From Rhizobium alarense (GTDB lineage: Bacteria; Pseudomonadota; Alphaproteobacteria; Rhizobiales; Rhizobiaceae), in assembly GCF_021555155.1 (NCBI RefSeq), contig NZ_JAKGBU010000010.1, forward strand, positions 1 to 64,000: a stretch of 64,000 nt of DNA. Direction: 5' to 3'. Position 1 is the first letter of the stretch. The number at the start of each line of letters is the position of its first letter. The position numbers and the translations under genes were made by a program. Positions 17,946 through 53,167 of the stretch are shown here, in pieces. The notes under the pieces were generated by a model that was given only the letters and a program-made list of their open reading frames with translations, had not been told where the DNA came from and made no database searches.

Positions 17946-18449
<504 letters not shown>

Positions 18450-18514
18450 TCAACGGTGCCCTTGGGCGAACATGCAGGGAGGCTTAACCCGCATGGCGCG
18501 CGGGGGCCTTCTGC

Positions 18515-18675
18515 CTGCTCTCTTTCATCCGGACTGTAACCGTCGGCTCCGGCATCGCACCGGATCTGCTGACCCTTCCGTTTCACCGGAAGGCGCTCGC
18601 GGGCTCCGGGCGCAACATGGCGACATGCCTTGCCCGATACCGCCGGTGGGGAATTTCGCCCCGCCCTGAGAACGA
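18515..18675 (-). promoter_or_regulatory. FMN riboswitch (RFN element) controlling ribH2
   Basis: Read on the minus strand, the conserved RFN blocks appear in order: TCAGGGCGGGGCGAAATTCC and CCACCGGCGGTA near the 5' end, AGCCCGCGAGCG in the middle, then GGTCAGCAGATCCGGTG, GCCGACGGTTACAGTCCGG and ATGAAAGAG at the 3' end. This aptamer binds FMN and lowers expression of riboflavin genes. Between it and ribH2 a CCCGC...GCGGG hairpin could act in the expression platform; no clear T-run is seen, so control may be at translation. The assignment is firm from sequence. Confidence 0.95.
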
Positions 18676-18723
18676 CGGCAAGCTAAATTGTGTGCTTTGC
18701 GAAATCAAGCTTGGAATCAATAG

Positions 18724-19074
18724 TCATTCGATAGGGGATTTTCCACAAAGTGTAATTATAGATGAAATGCTAAACATCAATAAGTATGCTAGAATACAAA
18801 TTAAAATAAAAGAAAATTTTTGCAGAATGCCGTTCGATAGATAATAGTATAAGGCCGAACTTCCGACTCCAGTCAGGGACAATAACAAAAATATGATTAT
18901 TTTCGATCGAGGACAAAAGCTTATATTCAGCATTTCTGCCGATATGCCGTATCCGGAGAGCAGGCCAATTGCTGATATGTAGTGTATTATCTCGAGACCA
19001 TTTGGAACTGGGAGGCTTATTTGACTAAAAAAATAGCCGCACGTCGCTACAATCGTAAATAAAAAAGTTTTCAT
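18724..19074 (-). CDS. Small polytopic membrane protein of unknown function
   Basis: 116 residues, strongly hydrophobic, with about four predicted membrane segments (roughly 3-22, 30-50, 58-78 and 84-108). Its ATG overlaps the stop of the secreted-protein gene before it (ATGA), so the two are translationally coupled. Codon use is AT-rich, as in its partner and unlike the rest of the window. I do not recognise the family. A small membrane partner of an exported protein could be an immunity, tethering or export factor, but nothing in the sequence proves any of these. Confidence 0.6.
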   Translation of the reverse strand: MKTFLFTIVATCGYFFSQISLPVPNGLEIIHYISAIGLLSGYGISAEMLNISFCPRSKIIIFLLLSLTGVGSSALYYYLSNGILQKFSFILICILAYLLMFSISSIITLCGKSPIE

Positions 19075-19976
19075 TTTAATACTGGGAGGGTGATTGTGCC
19101 GGTCGTTACTGGCTTATTATTGCTATCTAAAATTATCACATCCCTTTGTGCGTTCTCAATGGAGATCTTTCCATTTATGTTGTCGATCGCTTTTCCATAT
19201 ACTACGAGGCTGGTTTCATTTTTTTTACTTATCGGCGATTCTTTGAGCCATCCTGCCCAGTCCTCCAGATAATTATCCCCAATCCCAAATTTCTCGTTTC
19301 CAATAAAATAAAATTCGCCAATTTGATTTGTATTTCTGCTAGAAATTTCATCTATTGCCTCATGGGACCAAATTTCAGAAATATTTTGCACTACTCCATA
19401 ATAACCGCTGTCAGAAATTAATTCAAAATTTGAGATATACCCACCTTCGGATACGTCATAGTTGGCGTAAAAACTAACTGTTATTGTTTGTCCGTTGCGA
19501 GTGTAGCTTGTCGTAATCGAGCTTCTATTTCTATTAATTTCAGATTTTTCTACTTCCGCCTTTTTGTAAACTGCCGTATTCTGAACAGTGTTGTTGGCTC
19601 CGTATATAAGTGGAGCGTCGTCGTCAATTTCGGACTCGCTTGTGTTGGAGATAGGATATGTATTGCAATATATTCCGCCTGGCGAGAGTGGCGATGCTAT
19701 AGGAATCTTAATGTTTGCCTTCGGCCAGCTTACGTTTATGTGGGAGGATTTATGGCTGTTGAGAATGTAATTCCATACCCAACTAACTGAAGTGCTTTTG
19801 TCTACATCAGAGGCCCACGTGAATTCGGCACTCCCGCTGTTAACGTGTCCAACAATTGCGCTAGGCGGGGTCGCATCGAACTTAGTCGTATCACAAGCTT
19901 CCGCACACACAGGCGTCAGGTTGGTCCCGAACATGGCCAACGAAACAAACCAAATTGAACAAGCCTGCAACGACAT
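19071..19976 (-). CDS. Secreted protein of unknown function in AT-rich insert
   Basis: 301 residues from the ATG at 19976, which follows AGGGGGACC at good spacing. The N-terminus is a Sec signal peptide (hydrophobic to about residue 24, cleavage likely after CAEA or nearby). The mature part is rich in Asn, Ser, Thr and Ile with alternating hydrophobic patterns that suggest a beta-rich fold, and has two Cys (in EACDTTKF and IYCNTY) that could form a disulphide. No catalytic motif or known domain is apparent to me. It is the first gene of a two-gene coupled unit with the membrane protein after it. Confidence 0.65.
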   Translation of the reverse strand: MSLQACSIWFVSLAMFGTNLTPVCAEACDTTKFDATPPSAIVGHVNSGSAEFTWASDVDKSTSVSWVWNYILNSHKSSHINVSWPKANIKIPIASPLSPGGIYCNTYPISNTSESEIDDDAPLIYGANNTVQNTAVYKKAEVEKSEINRNRSSITTSYTRNGQTITVSFYANYDVSEGGYISNFELISDSGYYGVVQNISEIWSHEAIDEISSRNTNQIGEFYFIGNEKFGIGDNYLEDWAGWLKESPISKKNETSLVVYGKAIDNINGKISIENAQRDVIILDSNNKPVTTGTITLPVLK

Positions 19977-20041
19977 GTTTGGTCCCCCTGCTTCCAATCA
20001 ACTGTAGCACGAGTATGTTGATCTTAGAAGGGCGGGCTTGC

Positions 20042-21103
20042 TCAGTCGCGGATCACAAGCAGTTCGCTTGCGGTGAATTTCAGCGCCACCGTCTGGCCGG
20101 CAGACGGCGGGGCGATACCCGGATTGTTGAACATGTCGAACGAGATGACATGGCCGCCGACGTCCATGCGCGTGCGGATGACTGAGCCGAGGAAGTTCGA
20201 GGAGACGACCTTGCCCGACAGGGCGGTATCGCCCTTGGCGTCGGGAGCGATCGATCCGCTTTCTGGGCGAAGCGCCAGCGACAGCGTGTCACCGGCCTTG
20301 GCGCCGCCGATCGATTCGCGCAGCGTCACGCCCTGATCGCCGATCGTGACGCGGTTGGCGGCCGGATCGACCACCTTCGCCTCGATGAGGTTCAGCGTGC
20401 CGACGAAATTGGCGACGAAGCGGGTCGCCGGCCGGTTGTAGATCTCCGCGGGCTTGCCGATCTGGTCGGCGCGGCCGGCATTCATCACGACGATGCGGTC
20501 CGAGATCGACAGGGCCTCTTCCTGGTCGTGCGTCACGAAGACCGTGGTGATGCCGAGCTGCTGCTGGATCATCCGGATTTCCTCGCGCAGCGAGACGCGG
20601 ATCTTGGCGTCGAGCGCCGACAGCGGCTCGTCGAGCAGCAGCACCTGCGGCTTGGGCGCGAGCGCCCGGGCGAGCGCGACGCGCTGCTGCTGGCCGCCGG
20701 ACATCTGGAACGGGTAGCGCTCGGCGAGATGGTCGAGGTGGATGAGGCTCAGCATCTCCTTGACGCGGGCATCGATCTCGGCTTTCGGCCGGCCGGCGAT
20801 CTTGAGGCCGAAGGCGACGTTGTCGGCGACGTTCATATTGGGAAACAGCGCATAGGCCTGGAACACCATGCCGATGTTGCGCTGGTTCGGCTTCAGGTTC
20901 TGCTGGCTCTTGCCGTCGATGGCGATGGTGCCGCCCGACGGGCTCTCGAAGCCGGCGATCATGCGCAGCACGGTGGTCTTGCCGCAGCCGGACGGCCCGA
21001 GGAAGGAGACGAACTCGCCCTTCTCGATCGTCATGTTGAAGTCCTTCACGACCTGCACCGGCCCAAACGACTTTTGAATATTGCTCAGCGTCAAAAAGCT
21101 CAT
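20042..21103 (-). CDS. ABC transporter ATPase, PotA/FbpC type
   Basis: 353 residues. Walker A GPSGCGKT near 36-43, Q-loop FQAYALFP near 83, signature MSGGQQQR near 133, Walker B VLLLDEPLSALDAK near 155 and switch His in FVTHDQEEA near 192 are all canonical. A C-terminal TOBE region follows from about residue 230. It ends the operon of a binding protein and two permeases on the minus strand. Such systems carry polyamines, iron, phosphonates or opine-like amines. The adjacent RpiR regulator and amine-type catabolic genes suggest a small amine-containing substrate. Confidence 0.88.
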   Translation of the reverse strand: MSFLTLSNIQKSFGPVQVVKDFNMTIEKGEFVSFLGPSGCGKTTVLRMIAGFESPSGGTIAIDGKSQQNLKPNQRNIGMVFQAYALFPNMNVADNVAFGLKIAGRPKAEIDARVKEMLSLIHLDHLAERYPFQMSGGQQQRVALARALAPKPQVLLLDEPLSALDAKIRVSLREEIRMIQQQLGITTVFVTHDQEEALSISDRIVVMNAGRADQIGKPAEIYNRPATRFVANFVGTLNLIEAKVVDPAANRVTIGDQGVTLRESIGGAKAGDTLSLALRPESGSIAPDAKGDTALSGKVVSSNFLGSVIRTRMDVGGHVISFDMFNNPGIAPPSAGQTVALKFTASELLVIRD

Positions 21104-21115
21104 ACGAAAAAATCC

Positions 21116-21898
21116 TCAGGCCTGGCGCGGCGCGGTTTTCTGGAAACGGGAGACCAGCTGGATCAGCCCGAGGCAGCCCCAGGTGATGCCGAAGGCGATG
21201 ACGGCAAGTGCCGCCGGCTCGTAGGCACGGTTGGCGCCGAGAAGCTGCATGTAGGGACCGAAGGCCGGCCTGTTGAGCAGCGCCGCCATGGTGAACTCGC
21301 CGATGACGATGGCGAAGGTCAGGAAGGCGCCGGACAGCACCGCGACCAGCACGTTCGGCAGGATGATGCGGGCAAGGATCGTCGTCCAGCCCGCGCCGAG
21401 GCTCTGCGCCGCTTCCGTCAGGGTTGCGACGTCGATGGTGCGCAGGCCCGTGTCAACCGCCCGGTACATGTAGGGCAGCGCCAGCGTCGCATAGCCGAAC
21501 ATCAGGAGGATGTTGGTGCCGATCGTCGAGCCGGTCAGCGGCAGCCAGCTCGAGGTGTTGTAGAGCCGGATATAGCCGAAGACGATGACGATCGCCGGAA
21601 TGACGAGCGGCAGCAGCGTCACGAACTCGATATAGGGCCTGAGACCCGGCAGCTTGAGGCGCACCCAGTAGGCGGTCGGCACGACGAGCAGGATGCCGAA
21701 GACGATGGTGAAGAGCGCCTGCATCACCGAGTAGCCGAAGGTCTCCTGGAAGCGCGGATCGCCCAGCACCTTGGCATAGGCGTCGAAGGAATATTCGCCG
21801 CGCCGCATCTTGAGCGAGAAGTTGGTCATGCCGACGAGCGGCAGGGTGAAATAGAGGAGGCCGAATATGAGCGCTCCCCAGGCCCAGAGCTTCTTCAT
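21116..21898 (-). CDS. ABC transporter permease, PotC type
   Basis: 260 residues with about six membrane segments. The EAA loop reads LTEAAQSLGAGWTTILARII near residue 175. The start at 21898 overlaps the stop of the other permease (ATGA); longer upstream extensions of this frame have no family resemblance. It partners the PotB-type permease. Confidence 0.87.
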   Translation of the reverse strand: MKKLWAWGALIFGLLYFTLPLVGMTNFSLKMRRGEYSFDAYAKVLGDPRFQETFGYSVMQALFTIVFGILLVVPTAYWVRLKLPGLRPYIEFVTLLPLVIPAIVIVFGYIRLYNTSSWLPLTGSTIGTNILLMFGYATLALPYMYRAVDTGLRTIDVATLTEAAQSLGAGWTTILARIILPNVLVAVLSGAFLTFAIVIGEFTMAALLNRPAFGPYMQLLGANRAYEPAALAVIAFGITWGCLGLIQLVSRFQKTAPRQA

Positions 21899-22785
21899 TT
21901 GAGCCACCTTTCGCTGCGGGCGCGCAGCCAGATGTAGATCGCGTTGGCGATGCCGGTCACGACGATCATGCCGAAGGCGAGCGCGTAGCCGAGATGGGGG
22001 TCTCCGAGCACGTCGCCGCGGATCTGGGCGAAGAGCAGGATGGGCACGATGGAGAGCGACGAGCCGGTGAGCGCGATGGCGGTCGCGACCGCTCCGAAGG
22101 CGTTGGCGAAGAGCAGCGCCAGCGTGCCGAGCAGCGACGGCAGCAGGATCGGGAAGGCGACCAGCCGCCAATATTGCGCATTGGTGGCGCCGAGGATGGA
22201 TGCCGCTTCTCTCCACTCCCGCTTCAGCCCGTCGAGCGCCGGCGTGATGATGAGGATCATCAGCGGGATCTGGAAGAACAGATAGGTGATCGTCAGCCCC
22301 CAGAAGGAGAGCAGGTTGAAGCCGAGCAGGCGCAGGTCGATGCCGAGCTGGGTCTTCAGGAAGACCGTGACGAGACCGACGGGGCCGAGCGTCGCCAGAA
22401 AGGCGAAGGCGAGGGGCACGCCCGCGAAGTTCGAGGCGACGCCGGAGAAGGTCAGCAGCGGCCCGCGGATCGCCTGGGGAAGACCGCCCAGCACCACCGC
22501 CGATGCGACGGCGAAGCCGATCGCGCAGCCGAGCACTGCGGATGCGATGCTGATCTTGATCGAGATCCAGTAGGCGGCGAGGATCGAGTCCGTGAAAAGA
22601 CCGCGGATATTGGCGAGCGTGAAGCTGCCGTCCGGCGTCTGGAAGGCGCCGAGGACGATCCGCATCGTCGGCAGGATCAGAAACAGGAGAACAAAAATTG
22701 CAAAAGGGAGAATGCCGAGCCAGTGCAGCGGGAGGCGGAAGGGTGCTTTCGACGGCTGGTCGGGTTTTATGTTTTGCAAAGACAT
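21895..22785 (-). CDS. ABC transporter permease, PotB type
   Basis: 296 residues, first membrane segment near 22-44 after a short polar N-terminus (MSLQNIKPDQPSKAP). The EAA loop is REAASILGATNAQYWRLVAFP near residue 200. The start at 22785 is chosen because the 29 upstream in-frame codons translate a GC-rich hairpin region, not protein-like sequence. First permease gene of this operon. Confidence 0.86.
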   Translation of the reverse strand: MSLQNIKPDQPSKAPFRLPLHWLGILPFAIFVLLFLILPTMRIVLGAFQTPDGSFTLANIRGLFTDSILAAYWISIKISIASAVLGCAIGFAVASAVVLGGLPQAIRGPLLTFSGVASNFAGVPLAFAFLATLGPVGLVTVFLKTQLGIDLRLLGFNLLSFWGLTITYLFFQIPLMILIITPALDGLKREWREAASILGATNAQYWRLVAFPILLPSLLGTLALLFANAFGAVATAIALTGSSLSIVPILLFAQIRGDVLGDPHLGYALAFGMIVVTGIANAIYIWLRARSERWLK

Positions 22786-22838
22786 AAACTTTGCCTCGTA
22801 TCCGCGCCCCTCATGGGCGGGCTTATCGGGAGGGGAGA

Positions 22839-22864
22839 ACCGCCCCGGCCGAAACCGGGGCGGT
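22839..22864 (-). other. Strong intercistronic hairpin after binding-protein gene
   Basis: ACCGCCCCGG (22839-22848) and CCGGGGCGGT (22855-22864) form a 10-base-pair perfect stem with a 6-base loop, just after the binding-protein stop and before the permease gene. No T-run follows. It most likely protects the upstream mRNA so that the binding protein is made in excess. Confidence 0.6.
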
Positions 22865-22878
22865 GAAGGCATCGGCGC

Positions 22879-23985
22879 TTACTGGACGTTGGCGCCGACG
22901 ACCGAGTCCCAGCCGCCGGTCACGGCTGCCTTGTTGGCGTCGACTTCTTCCAGCGTCGGGAAGTAGGCCTTTTCGTAGGATTCGGCCGGCGGCAGCTTGT
23001 CGAGCATTTCCTGCGGAACCTTGCCGGCCTTGACCATGGCGTTGAAGCGTGCCGGGTGGCAATAGCCCTTCAGCCAGCCGAGCTGGCCGTCGTCGGAATA
23101 GAGGTGTTCCATCCAGAGCTTGGCGGCGTTCGGATGCGGTGCGAAGGCCGAGATGCCCTGAACATAGACGCCGGCGAGCACGCCCGATGCCGGAACGACG
23201 ACCTCGACCGGCGGGTTGCCGGCAAGCGTGTCCTTGGCGGCAAGCGCGTTGTAGTCCCACATGACGACGATCGGGGTTGCGCCCTGGGCGAGCGTGCCGG
23301 ACTTGCCGATGACCGGAACGAAGTTGCCGGCCTTGTTGAGGTCGCCGAAGTACTTCAGGCCCGCCTCGCCGGCATCCTTGCCGGCGGCCGCGCCCGAAGC
23401 CATGCCGGCGGCGAGAACGCCGAGGATCGCCTGGTTCGAGGCGCGCGGGTCGCCTGCGAGAGCCACCTGGCCGGCATATTCCGGCTTCAGGAGATCGGCC
23501 CAGTCAGCCGGCGTGTTGGAAACCAGGTCCTTGTTCACCAGCAGCGACATCACGCCATAGTAGTCGCCGTACCAGTAGCCTTCGGCGTCCTTGACGTTTT
23601 CCGGGATCTCGTCCCAGGTCGAGACCTTGTAGGGCTGCAGCAGGCCTTCGGCCTTCATCTGCGGGCCGAAGGCGAGACCGACGTCGACGACGTCCGGCGA
23701 CTGCGGGCCCATATTGTCCTTGTTGGCCTTGATGGCTTCCACTTCGTCGGCGGAGCCGGCGTCGGGGTTCAGTTCGTTGACCTGGATCTCCGGGTACTTC
23801 GCCTTGAAGGACTCGATGACGGCGCCGTAGCCGCACCAGTCGTGCGGAAGTGCGATCGTCGTCAGCATGCCTTCTTTCTTGGCGGCTTCGATGAGCTCGG
23901 CGCTCGGCTCGGCGAAGGCGGCGGTGGAGGACAGGGCCATGCCGATGGCCGTGGAGAGGCAAAGCAGGCGTTTGGTCTGTGACAT
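22879..23985 (-). CDS. ABC transporter substrate-binding protein (PotD/FbpA-like class)
   Basis: 368 residues with a clear Sec signal peptide (MSQTKRLLCLSTAIGMALSSTAAFA, cleavage near residue 25). The mature body fits family 1 periplasmic binding proteins that serve PotA/FbpC-type importers: DVVDVGLAFGPQMKAEGLLQPYK near 98 and VVMWDYNALAAKDT near 240. Start set at MSQTKR; upstream codons are not signal-like. The ligand is not evident. The gene is the first of the operon and faces away from the RpiR gene's start. Confidence 0.85.
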   Translation of the reverse strand: MSQTKRLLCLSTAIGMALSSTAAFAEPSAELIEAAKKEGMLTTIALPHDWCGYGAVIESFKAKYPEIQVNELNPDAGSADEVEAIKANKDNMGPQSPDVVDVGLAFGPQMKAEGLLQPYKVSTWDEIPENVKDAEGYWYGDYYGVMSLLVNKDLVSNTPADWADLLKPEYAGQVALAGDPRASNQAILGVLAAGMASGAAAGKDAGEAGLKYFGDLNKAGNFVPVIGKSGTLAQGATPIVVMWDYNALAAKDTLAGNPPVEVVVPASGVLAGVYVQGISAFAPHPNAAKLWMEHLYSDDGQLGWLKGYCHPARFNAMVKAGKVPQEMLDKLPPAESYEKAYFPTLEEVDANKAAVTGGWDSVVGANVQ

Positions 23986-24096
23986 CACGGGTGTTCTCCT
24001 TTTGCGTGTCATTCCATGTCGGCGAAGCTGATAGCGGTGGCAGATGAACCTTATGTGACAGTAATATTTCGGTTTTTCCCGTCCGGCATTCCCGGC

Positions 24097-52708: not shown

Positions 52709-52748
52709 AAAACGCATGGCGCCATTTCGGAGCCATGCGTTTTCTACG
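52709..52748 (+). terminator. Terminator after metF
   Basis: AAAACGCATGGC (52709-52720) and GCCATGCGTTTT (52732-52743) form a 12-base-pair stem with an 11-base loop and T-rich end. The symmetry suits termination from either side, so it could also serve the small minus-strand gene downstream. Confidence 0.85.
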
Positions 52749-52810
52749 AACTTCGGTGGCTGTTTCTTGTTTTTTGTTGTCCCGCCCGAAGCGGGAGTGG
52801 CGCCGTCGCC

Positions 52811-52888
52811 TCAAATGAAAAGCATCGTGGCGACGAAGAGGAACGCTGCACTGATCATCAGAACATTCAAGGAATGTGTGAGTCCCAT
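52811..52888 (-). CDS. 25-residue single-pass membrane protein
   Basis: ATG at 52888 reads 25 codons to TGA at 52811: MGLTHSLNVLMISAAFLFVATMLFI. AAGGAGGT sits six bases before the ATG, the strongest ribosome site in the window, on the minus strand. The peptide is one hydrophobic helix (about residues 7-25) after a short polar N-terminus, like small membrane proteins such as YnhF. It is too short for routine gene finders. The 12-base-pair hairpin after metF lies about 70 bases downstream and could end its transcript. Function unknown. Confidence 0.75.
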   Translation of the reverse strand: MGLTHSLNVLMISAAFLFVATMLFI

Positions 52889-53167
52889 GGCTTACCTCCT
52901 TGCGTTACGGGGCGGATATTACGTCCGTTAAGCCGTCCTTGAAAAGCCGATATTGTGCTGCACTGCGGAAACCCCCACGGGCATGTGCGTTTTCCACATG
53001 GATAAGTATTTGATATATAATGAGTAATTTTCTCGTCACAAATTTTTCCCACTACCGCCGCTTTGGTTAATGCGTGCAAAGTGCATTCCTAAACGGCACA
53101 GCACTTCACCGGTTCCAATGTCCTGAAATAATTCGTGATTCGGTTTTCGCGCCGTGCCGGACGCGTG
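52889..53167. other. Intergenic region between small membrane protein and DMT transporter
   Basis: No gene of either strand is evident. An AT-rich patch at about 53005-53045 (with TATAAT at 53016 on the plus strand) contrasts with the GC-rich surroundings and may carry the promoter of the small minus-strand gene. No hairpin of note. Confidence 0.4.

What the first reader, a model, noticed from the sequence alone, without database searches (positions are those of the whole stretch)
18680..20010. AT-rich insert coding for an unknown secreted protein coupled to a small membrane protein
Both genes have foreign base composition, overlap by ATGA, and match no family I know. A signal-peptide protein followed by a four-pass membrane protein is a layout seen in effector/immunity, bacteriocin and surface-anchoring pairs, but none of these is shown. 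It is the clearest candidate here for an undescribed two-gene system. It sits next to the riboswitch without visible mobile genes.
Basis: partly seen in the sequence, partly recalled or inferred. Interest (0 to 1): 0.7.

Follow-up and report, generated by a model that had tools for sequence, protein, structure and literature searches.

The report
Rare mobile two-gene cell-envelope module
An AT-rich piece of DNA inserted next to a vitamin-B2 switch carries two partner genes, one for an exported protein and one for a small membrane protein, that match no known family but travel together through unrelated rhizobia, twice beside anti-virus defence genes, so they may form an undescribed cell-envelope defence or exclusion system.

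Summary
On the minus strand, gene 1 (19071-19976, 301 aa, probably exported, beta-rich) and gene 2 (18724-19074, 116 aa, four predicted helices) overlap by ATGA inside a 40% GC insert (window 65%, about 6 SD). Two genomes from other genera of the same family have the empty site: the ABC operon is followed within about 120 bp by the FMN riboswitch and ribH, so the pair was inserted there. Neither protein has a significant Pfam, NCBIfam, PHROGs, PADLOC or PDB match. Only three distant relatives were found: Mesorhizobium sp. AR07, M. camelthorni and a Microvirga lotononidis plasmid. All carry both genes in the same order, and held-out profiles confirm homology of both. One pair adjoins Gabija; one lies beside a STAND (Avs4/PDC-M54A-like) protein, an integrase, a transposase and PRTase-CE genes; one is on a repABC plasmid by a resolvase. 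It is a real, undescribed, rare, horizontally moving envelope module. Phage defence or DNA-entry exclusion at the envelope is my preferred function (about 0.4), inferred from neighbourhood and topology only. Secreted toxin/immunity and surface modules remain open.

The parts
19071..19976 (-). Gene 1: 301-aa exported protein; N-terminal signal peptide, Ig-like beta-sandwich about residues 40-144 (low-confidence model), second beta-rich part; conserved Cys28/Cys104 and a DDxxPxxYG motif
18724..19074 (-). Gene 2: 116-aa membrane protein, four predicted helices (2-19, 28-50, 56-80, 85-110); conserved VPxGxExxH motif in the first loop
19071..19074 (-). ATGA overlap of gene 1 stop and gene 2 start (translational coupling)
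18678..20041 (-). Inserted or replaced stretch between the ABC-transporter stop and the FMN aptamer: 1364 bp here, about 117-119 bp in two relatives
20016..20028 (-). CCCTTCTAAGATC, 13-bp word that in the relative L069 lies about 10 bp before the riboswitch (its likely -10 region); here it lies before gene 1
   Evidence: 0 of 3000 shuffles share so long a word
18513..18677 (-). FMN riboswitch of ribH, directly downstream of the insert (host feature, not part of the module)
17946..18446 (-). ribH (lumazine synthase), host gene controlled by the riboswitch
20042..21103 (-). ABC transporter ATPase, last gene of the host operon on the other side of the insert

Best explanation
The pair is a rare, horizontally moving two-gene module of the cell envelope. 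Gene 1 is exported to the periplasm or surface and folds into beta-sandwich domains that bind something; gene 2 is a four-helix inner-membrane partner whose most conserved loop (VPxGxExxH) probably faces the periplasm and meets gene 1. The most likely role is defence against phages, or exclusion of incoming DNA, at the envelope: gene 1 senses or blocks a phage or mating component outside the inner membrane and gene 2 anchors it or acts on the membrane. Shown: the two genes, the insertion, joint conservation, absence of known families, defence or mobile neighbours. Inferred: export, topology, interaction, defence function.
For: All four loci found carry both genes in the same order with 2-9 bp gaps or an overlap. 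Held-out profiles confirm both families. The pair is AT-richer than its surroundings in all four loci, has an empty site here, and was found in 2 of 395 sampled genomes of the family (window genome included) and 1 of 146 of the AR07 genus, as expected of mobile cargo. In AR07 it lies about 300 bp from a GajA/GajB pair (PADLOC E 1e-228 and 1e-183), and related genomes lack the whole stretch beside the same transporter gene. In M. camelthorni it lies about 400 bp from a 1712-aa STAND-like protein (PDC-M54A 1e-10, Avs4 3e-7), followed by an integrase, a transposase and PRTase-CE genes. In Microvirga it is on a repABC plasmid by a resolvase. Positive charges of gene 2 cluster in the loop between helices 2 and 3, which puts the first and third loops outside.
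Against: No activity is known. Only four members exist in the data, so the defence association rests on two loci, and islands carry many unrelated cargo genes. In the window the pair stands alone without any defence gene. Structures are low confidence (pLDDT 52 and 60) and show no specific fold. The window's signal peptide is weak.
Confidence: 0.4

Rival explanations
1. Surface or matrix module: gene 1 is an adhesin- or matrix-like protein held or exported by gene 2, carried as niche cargo on islands and plasmids with no part in defence.
For: The N-terminal model resembles common Ig/FnIII-like sandwiches, with Vibrio cholerae RbmA (a matrix protein) on top at Z 6.7, though tied with unrelated rows. 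Exported beta proteins are often binding proteins. All hosts are soil bacteria, rhizobia or their kin.
Against: Z below 8 from a low-confidence model is not diagnostic. No sortase, WxL, type I or type V secretion partner is next to it. It lies beside defence genes in two of three other loci.
Confidence: 0.27
2. Secreted toxin with membrane immunity protein: gene 1 acts on competitors or on the periplasm, gene 2 protects the producer.
For: Order, coupling and membrane nature of gene 2 fit; both genes always together.
Against: No toxin family, no catalytic signature, no secretion system or export genes beside it, conserved residues are mainly structural (Cys, Pro, Gly, Tyr). The N-terminal region of gene 1 is its best conserved part, whereas polymorphic toxins vary at the C-terminal end (general knowledge).
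Confidence: 0.15
3. Conjugation entry-exclusion or superinfection-exclusion cargo of a plasmid or prophage that was left behind in the window genome.
For: One member is on a repABC plasmid by a resolvase, one is in an island with an integrase. Exclusion systems commonly pair an envelope lipoprotein with an inner-membrane protein (TraT/TraS; general knowledge).
Against: No conjugation genes next to any copy; nothing found in 50,697 phage records or 2.9 million viral contigs; the plasmid is typed non-mobilizable.
Confidence: 0.13
4. Degenerate or non-functional island debris.
For: Alone in the window, few relatives, weak signal peptide.
Against: Both frames are intact and their folds and key motifs are conserved across about 25-34% identity; a strong ribosome-binding site is kept.
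Confidence: 0.05

Closest known systems
Gabija (GajA/GajB) and STAND (Avs-like) defence islands
   Same: The pair sits next to these genes in two of the three other loci.
   Different: No sequence relation to any PADLOC model: best E 0.0014 for gene 1 (C3a181, unrelated diadenylate cyclase model) and 0.037 for gene 2 (ZorA).
Plasmid surface/entry exclusion pairs such as TraT/TraS
   Same: One envelope protein plus one small inner-membrane protein, carried on mobile DNA (resemblance from general knowledge).
   Different: No conjugation locus beside it, no sequence match, gene 1 is not a recognisable lipoprotein.
Phage superinfection-exclusion membrane proteins such as P22 SieA (PMC10883804)
   Same: Small envelope-acting cargo that would stop phage DNA at the membrane.
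   Different: SieA acts alone and is prophage-borne; here two proteins, no prophage, no homology.
Vibrio cholerae RbmA (FnIII-type matrix protein)
   Same: Top row, tied with others, of the second-look structural comparison for residues 41-136 (Z 6.7, rmsd 2.8, 83 aligned).
   Different: Below the level that means relationship; RbmA has no membrane partner gene of this kind.

Membership tests
Known protein families (Pfam, NCBIfam, PHROGs, PADLOC) | Score above the curated cut-off or clearly significant E-value | tested here: not met
   Best: PF16158 14.5 bits (cut-off 28) for gene 1; nothing for gene 2; likewise for the relatives.
Families with a solved structure | Sequence match in the PDB | tested here: not met
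   phmmer best E 0.5 (FosB, 28 residues), chance; gene 1 only.
Ig/FnIII-like beta-sandwich fold (gene 1, residues 40-144) | Structural match well above background | tested here: inconclusive
   Foldseek no E below 0.001; VIA-align Z up to 6.7; model pLDDT 52.
Known four-helix membrane protein families (gene 2) | Structural match well above background | tested here: inconclusive
   Foldseek best E 0.46; VIA-align rows are generic helical bundles; model pLDDT 60.
Two-gene anti-phage defence system | Located with defence genes | tested here: met
   Two of four loci (Gabija; STAND plus PRTase-CE), not in the window itself. No enrichment test was possible with four members.
Two-gene anti-phage defence system | Protects against phage when expressed | not testable with these tools
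   Experiment needed.
Two-gene module (obligate pair) | Gene 1 and gene 2 always together | tested here: met
   4 of 4 loci; the two solo gene-2 hits inspected proved to be chance, one inside an ISAs1 transposase, one an MgtC-like protein.
Secreted toxin/immunity pair | Recognisable toxin domain or delivery system | tested here: not met
   No toxin family in Pfam, NCBIfam or PADLOC; no delivery genes adjacent.
Conjugative entry exclusion | Encoded within a conjugation gene cluster | tested here: not met
   No conjugation genes near any copy; Microvirga plasmid typed non-mobilizable.

The most novel reading that the evidence does not exclude
An undescribed two-component envelope immune or exclusion system of Alphaproteobacteria: a periplasmic beta-sandwich sensor or blocker plus a four-helix inner-membrane partner, moving as a 1.25-kb cassette between defence islands, plasmids and bare chromosomal sites.
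Probability: 0.35. Interest if true: 0.75.

Novelty: new variant of a known kind. Interest (0 to 1): 0.5.

Why it matters
Most known bacterial defences work in the cytoplasm. A transferable pair that works outside the inner membrane would add to the few known systems that stop phage or plasmid DNA at the envelope, and it would do so with protein families that no public library describes. Even if the function proves to be different, the pair is a clean, testable case of an unknown two-gene cargo with a defined empty site.

Tried and rejected
Solo gene-2 homologues: the Azotobacter plasmid hit (E 3e-3) lies inside an ISAs1 transposase and the G185 hit is an MgtC-like protein, both chance; weak plasmid hits of the M. 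camelthorni gene 2 (E 0.1 and 0.8) were not followed. The C3a181 (E 0.0014), N_BRCA1_IG, FosB and ZorA hints are below cut-offs and are not repeated in the relatives. Viral contigs and phage records gave no relative. A further 397 order, 385 class and 190 phylum genomes gave no relative beyond the window's own. A direct or inverted repeat flanking the insert was sought and not found. The structure searches gave only generic beta-sandwiches (gene 1) and generic helical bundles (gene 2), among them NINJ1/NINJ2 and MLKL rows that stand no higher than designed helical bundles, so no pore function is claimed. Prophage nature of the Microvirga plasmid: replication genes and one DNA-ejection-protein-like gene (phrog_4287), no virion structural gene recognised among the ten proteins scanned, undecided. 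A consensus sigma-70 promoter directly before gene 1 was not found.

Full report
Observation. Gene 1 is 19071-19976 on the minus strand (301 aa from the ATG with a strong ribosome-binding site) and gene 2 is 18724-19074 (116 aa), sharing ATGA. The two genes are 40.1% GC; 1250-bp pieces of the window average 65.1% with an SD of 4.0, and no other part falls below 50%. The FMN riboswitch of ribH is at 18513-18677.

The insert is an insertion. In two genomes of other genera of the same family (G003 = L069, G044 = L070) the same ABC operon (binding protein, two permeases, ATPase; 80-93% identical proteins) is followed directly by the same FMN riboswitch and ribH: the aptamer starts 117-119 bp after the ATPase gene. 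In the window the distance is 1364 bp. In both relatives the gap begins with a strong GC-rich hairpin (-24.9 and -23.7 kcal/mol, better than all 200 shuffles); in the window no such hairpin follows the ATPase gene. A 13-bp word, CCCTTCTAAGATC, lies about 10 bp before the aptamer in L069 but right after the ATPase gene in the window, before gene 1; 0 of 3000 shuffles of the two gaps share so long a word. The simplest reading, inferred, is that the cassette landed between the promoter of the riboswitch and its aptamer, so that gene 1 may now use that promoter or be read through from the ABC operon. No target duplication or flanking repeat was seen.

No known family. Neither protein, nor any relative, reaches a cut-off in Pfam, NCBIfam, PHROGs or PADLOC, and gene 1 has no PDB sequence match.

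Relatives. Searches of 395 genomes of the family, 397 of the order, 385 of the class, 190 of the phylum, 146 of the AR07 genus, 84,980 species genomes by pattern, 72,556 plasmids, 50,697 phages and 2.9 million viral contigs found only three more loci: Mesorhizobium sp. AR07 (L025), M. camelthorni (L026, the same contig as G226) and the 41-kb repABC plasmid of Microvirga lotononidis (L003). Each has gene 1 (292-359 aa) followed at once by gene 2 (120-126 aa), with gaps of 2-9 bp. Identity of gene 1 proteins to one another is about 24-34%, of gene 2 proteins about 20-25%. Profiles built from three members find the fourth far above 2000 shuffles: gene 1 at 78-175 bits (shuffles at most 9.0), gene 2 at 27-34 bits (shuffles at most 14.7). 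So both are true families and they travel as a pair. Two apparent solo gene-2 hits are chance. The pattern scans reach only fairly close relatives, so four members is a lower bound.

Neighbourhoods. In AR07 the pair lies divergent to and about 300 bp from GajA and GajB (PADLOC E 1e-228, 1e-183). Genomes that share the transporter gene on its right (86-90% identical DNA) share nothing to the left of a point about 330 bp after gene 2, so the pair is at the edge of variable DNA. In M. camelthorni the pair is followed by a 1712-aa protein with weak but significant PDC-M54A and Avs4 similarity, a phage-type integrase, a DDE transposase and a split PRTase-CE gene. In Microvirga it is between a resolvase and the rep genes of the plasmid. 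In the window it stands alone. The pair is AT-richer than its locus in all four cases.

Anatomy and mechanism. Gene 1 has a signal peptide that is clear in the relatives and weaker in the window (no Lys/Arg before the hydrophobic stretch), two invariant cysteines (28 and 104 here) that could form a disulfide, and an invariant core around D118-P122-Y125-G126-Q132. AlphaFold2 with three sequences gives a low-confidence model (pLDDT 52) of beta-sandwich type; residues 40-144 resemble Ig/FnIII-like domains at Z up to 6.7, which is not diagnostic. Gene 2 is modelled as four helices (pLDDT 60); its positive charges lie mainly between helices 2 and 3, so by the positive-inside rule (general knowledge) the first loop, which holds its conserved VPxGxExxH motif, faces the periplasm, where gene 1 would be. 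The proposed working is a periplasmic binding protein that meets a membrane partner. The preferred use, envelope-level defence or exclusion, is inferred from two defence neighbourhoods, a plasmid and the topology. It is not shown.

Verdict. A genuine, undescribed, rare, mobile two-gene envelope module. The small number of members limits confidence.

Noticed in passing
window 52709-52909 (-): Rhizobiales sRNA Atu_C9 (RF02503, 95.6 bits).
   Followed up: no
window 17946-24012 (-): ABC operon followed by FMN riboswitch and ribH is conserved with G003 and G044, so the transporter and this ribH copy may belong to one flavin-related locus.
   Followed up: partly
L038 7731-14347: M. camelthorni island: phage-type integrase, DDE transposase and a PRTase-CE gene split over two frames.
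   Followed up: partly
L034 16971-20450 and 20921-23443: Microvirga lotononidis plasmid proteins of 1160 and 841 aa without any Pfam or PHROGs match, near a primase and helicase; the plasmid may be an unusual replicon or phage-plasmid.
   Followed up: partly
G000 C24:66222-66644: A second, diverged ribH copy in the window's genome, 29% identical to the riboswitch-controlled one.
   Followed up: no
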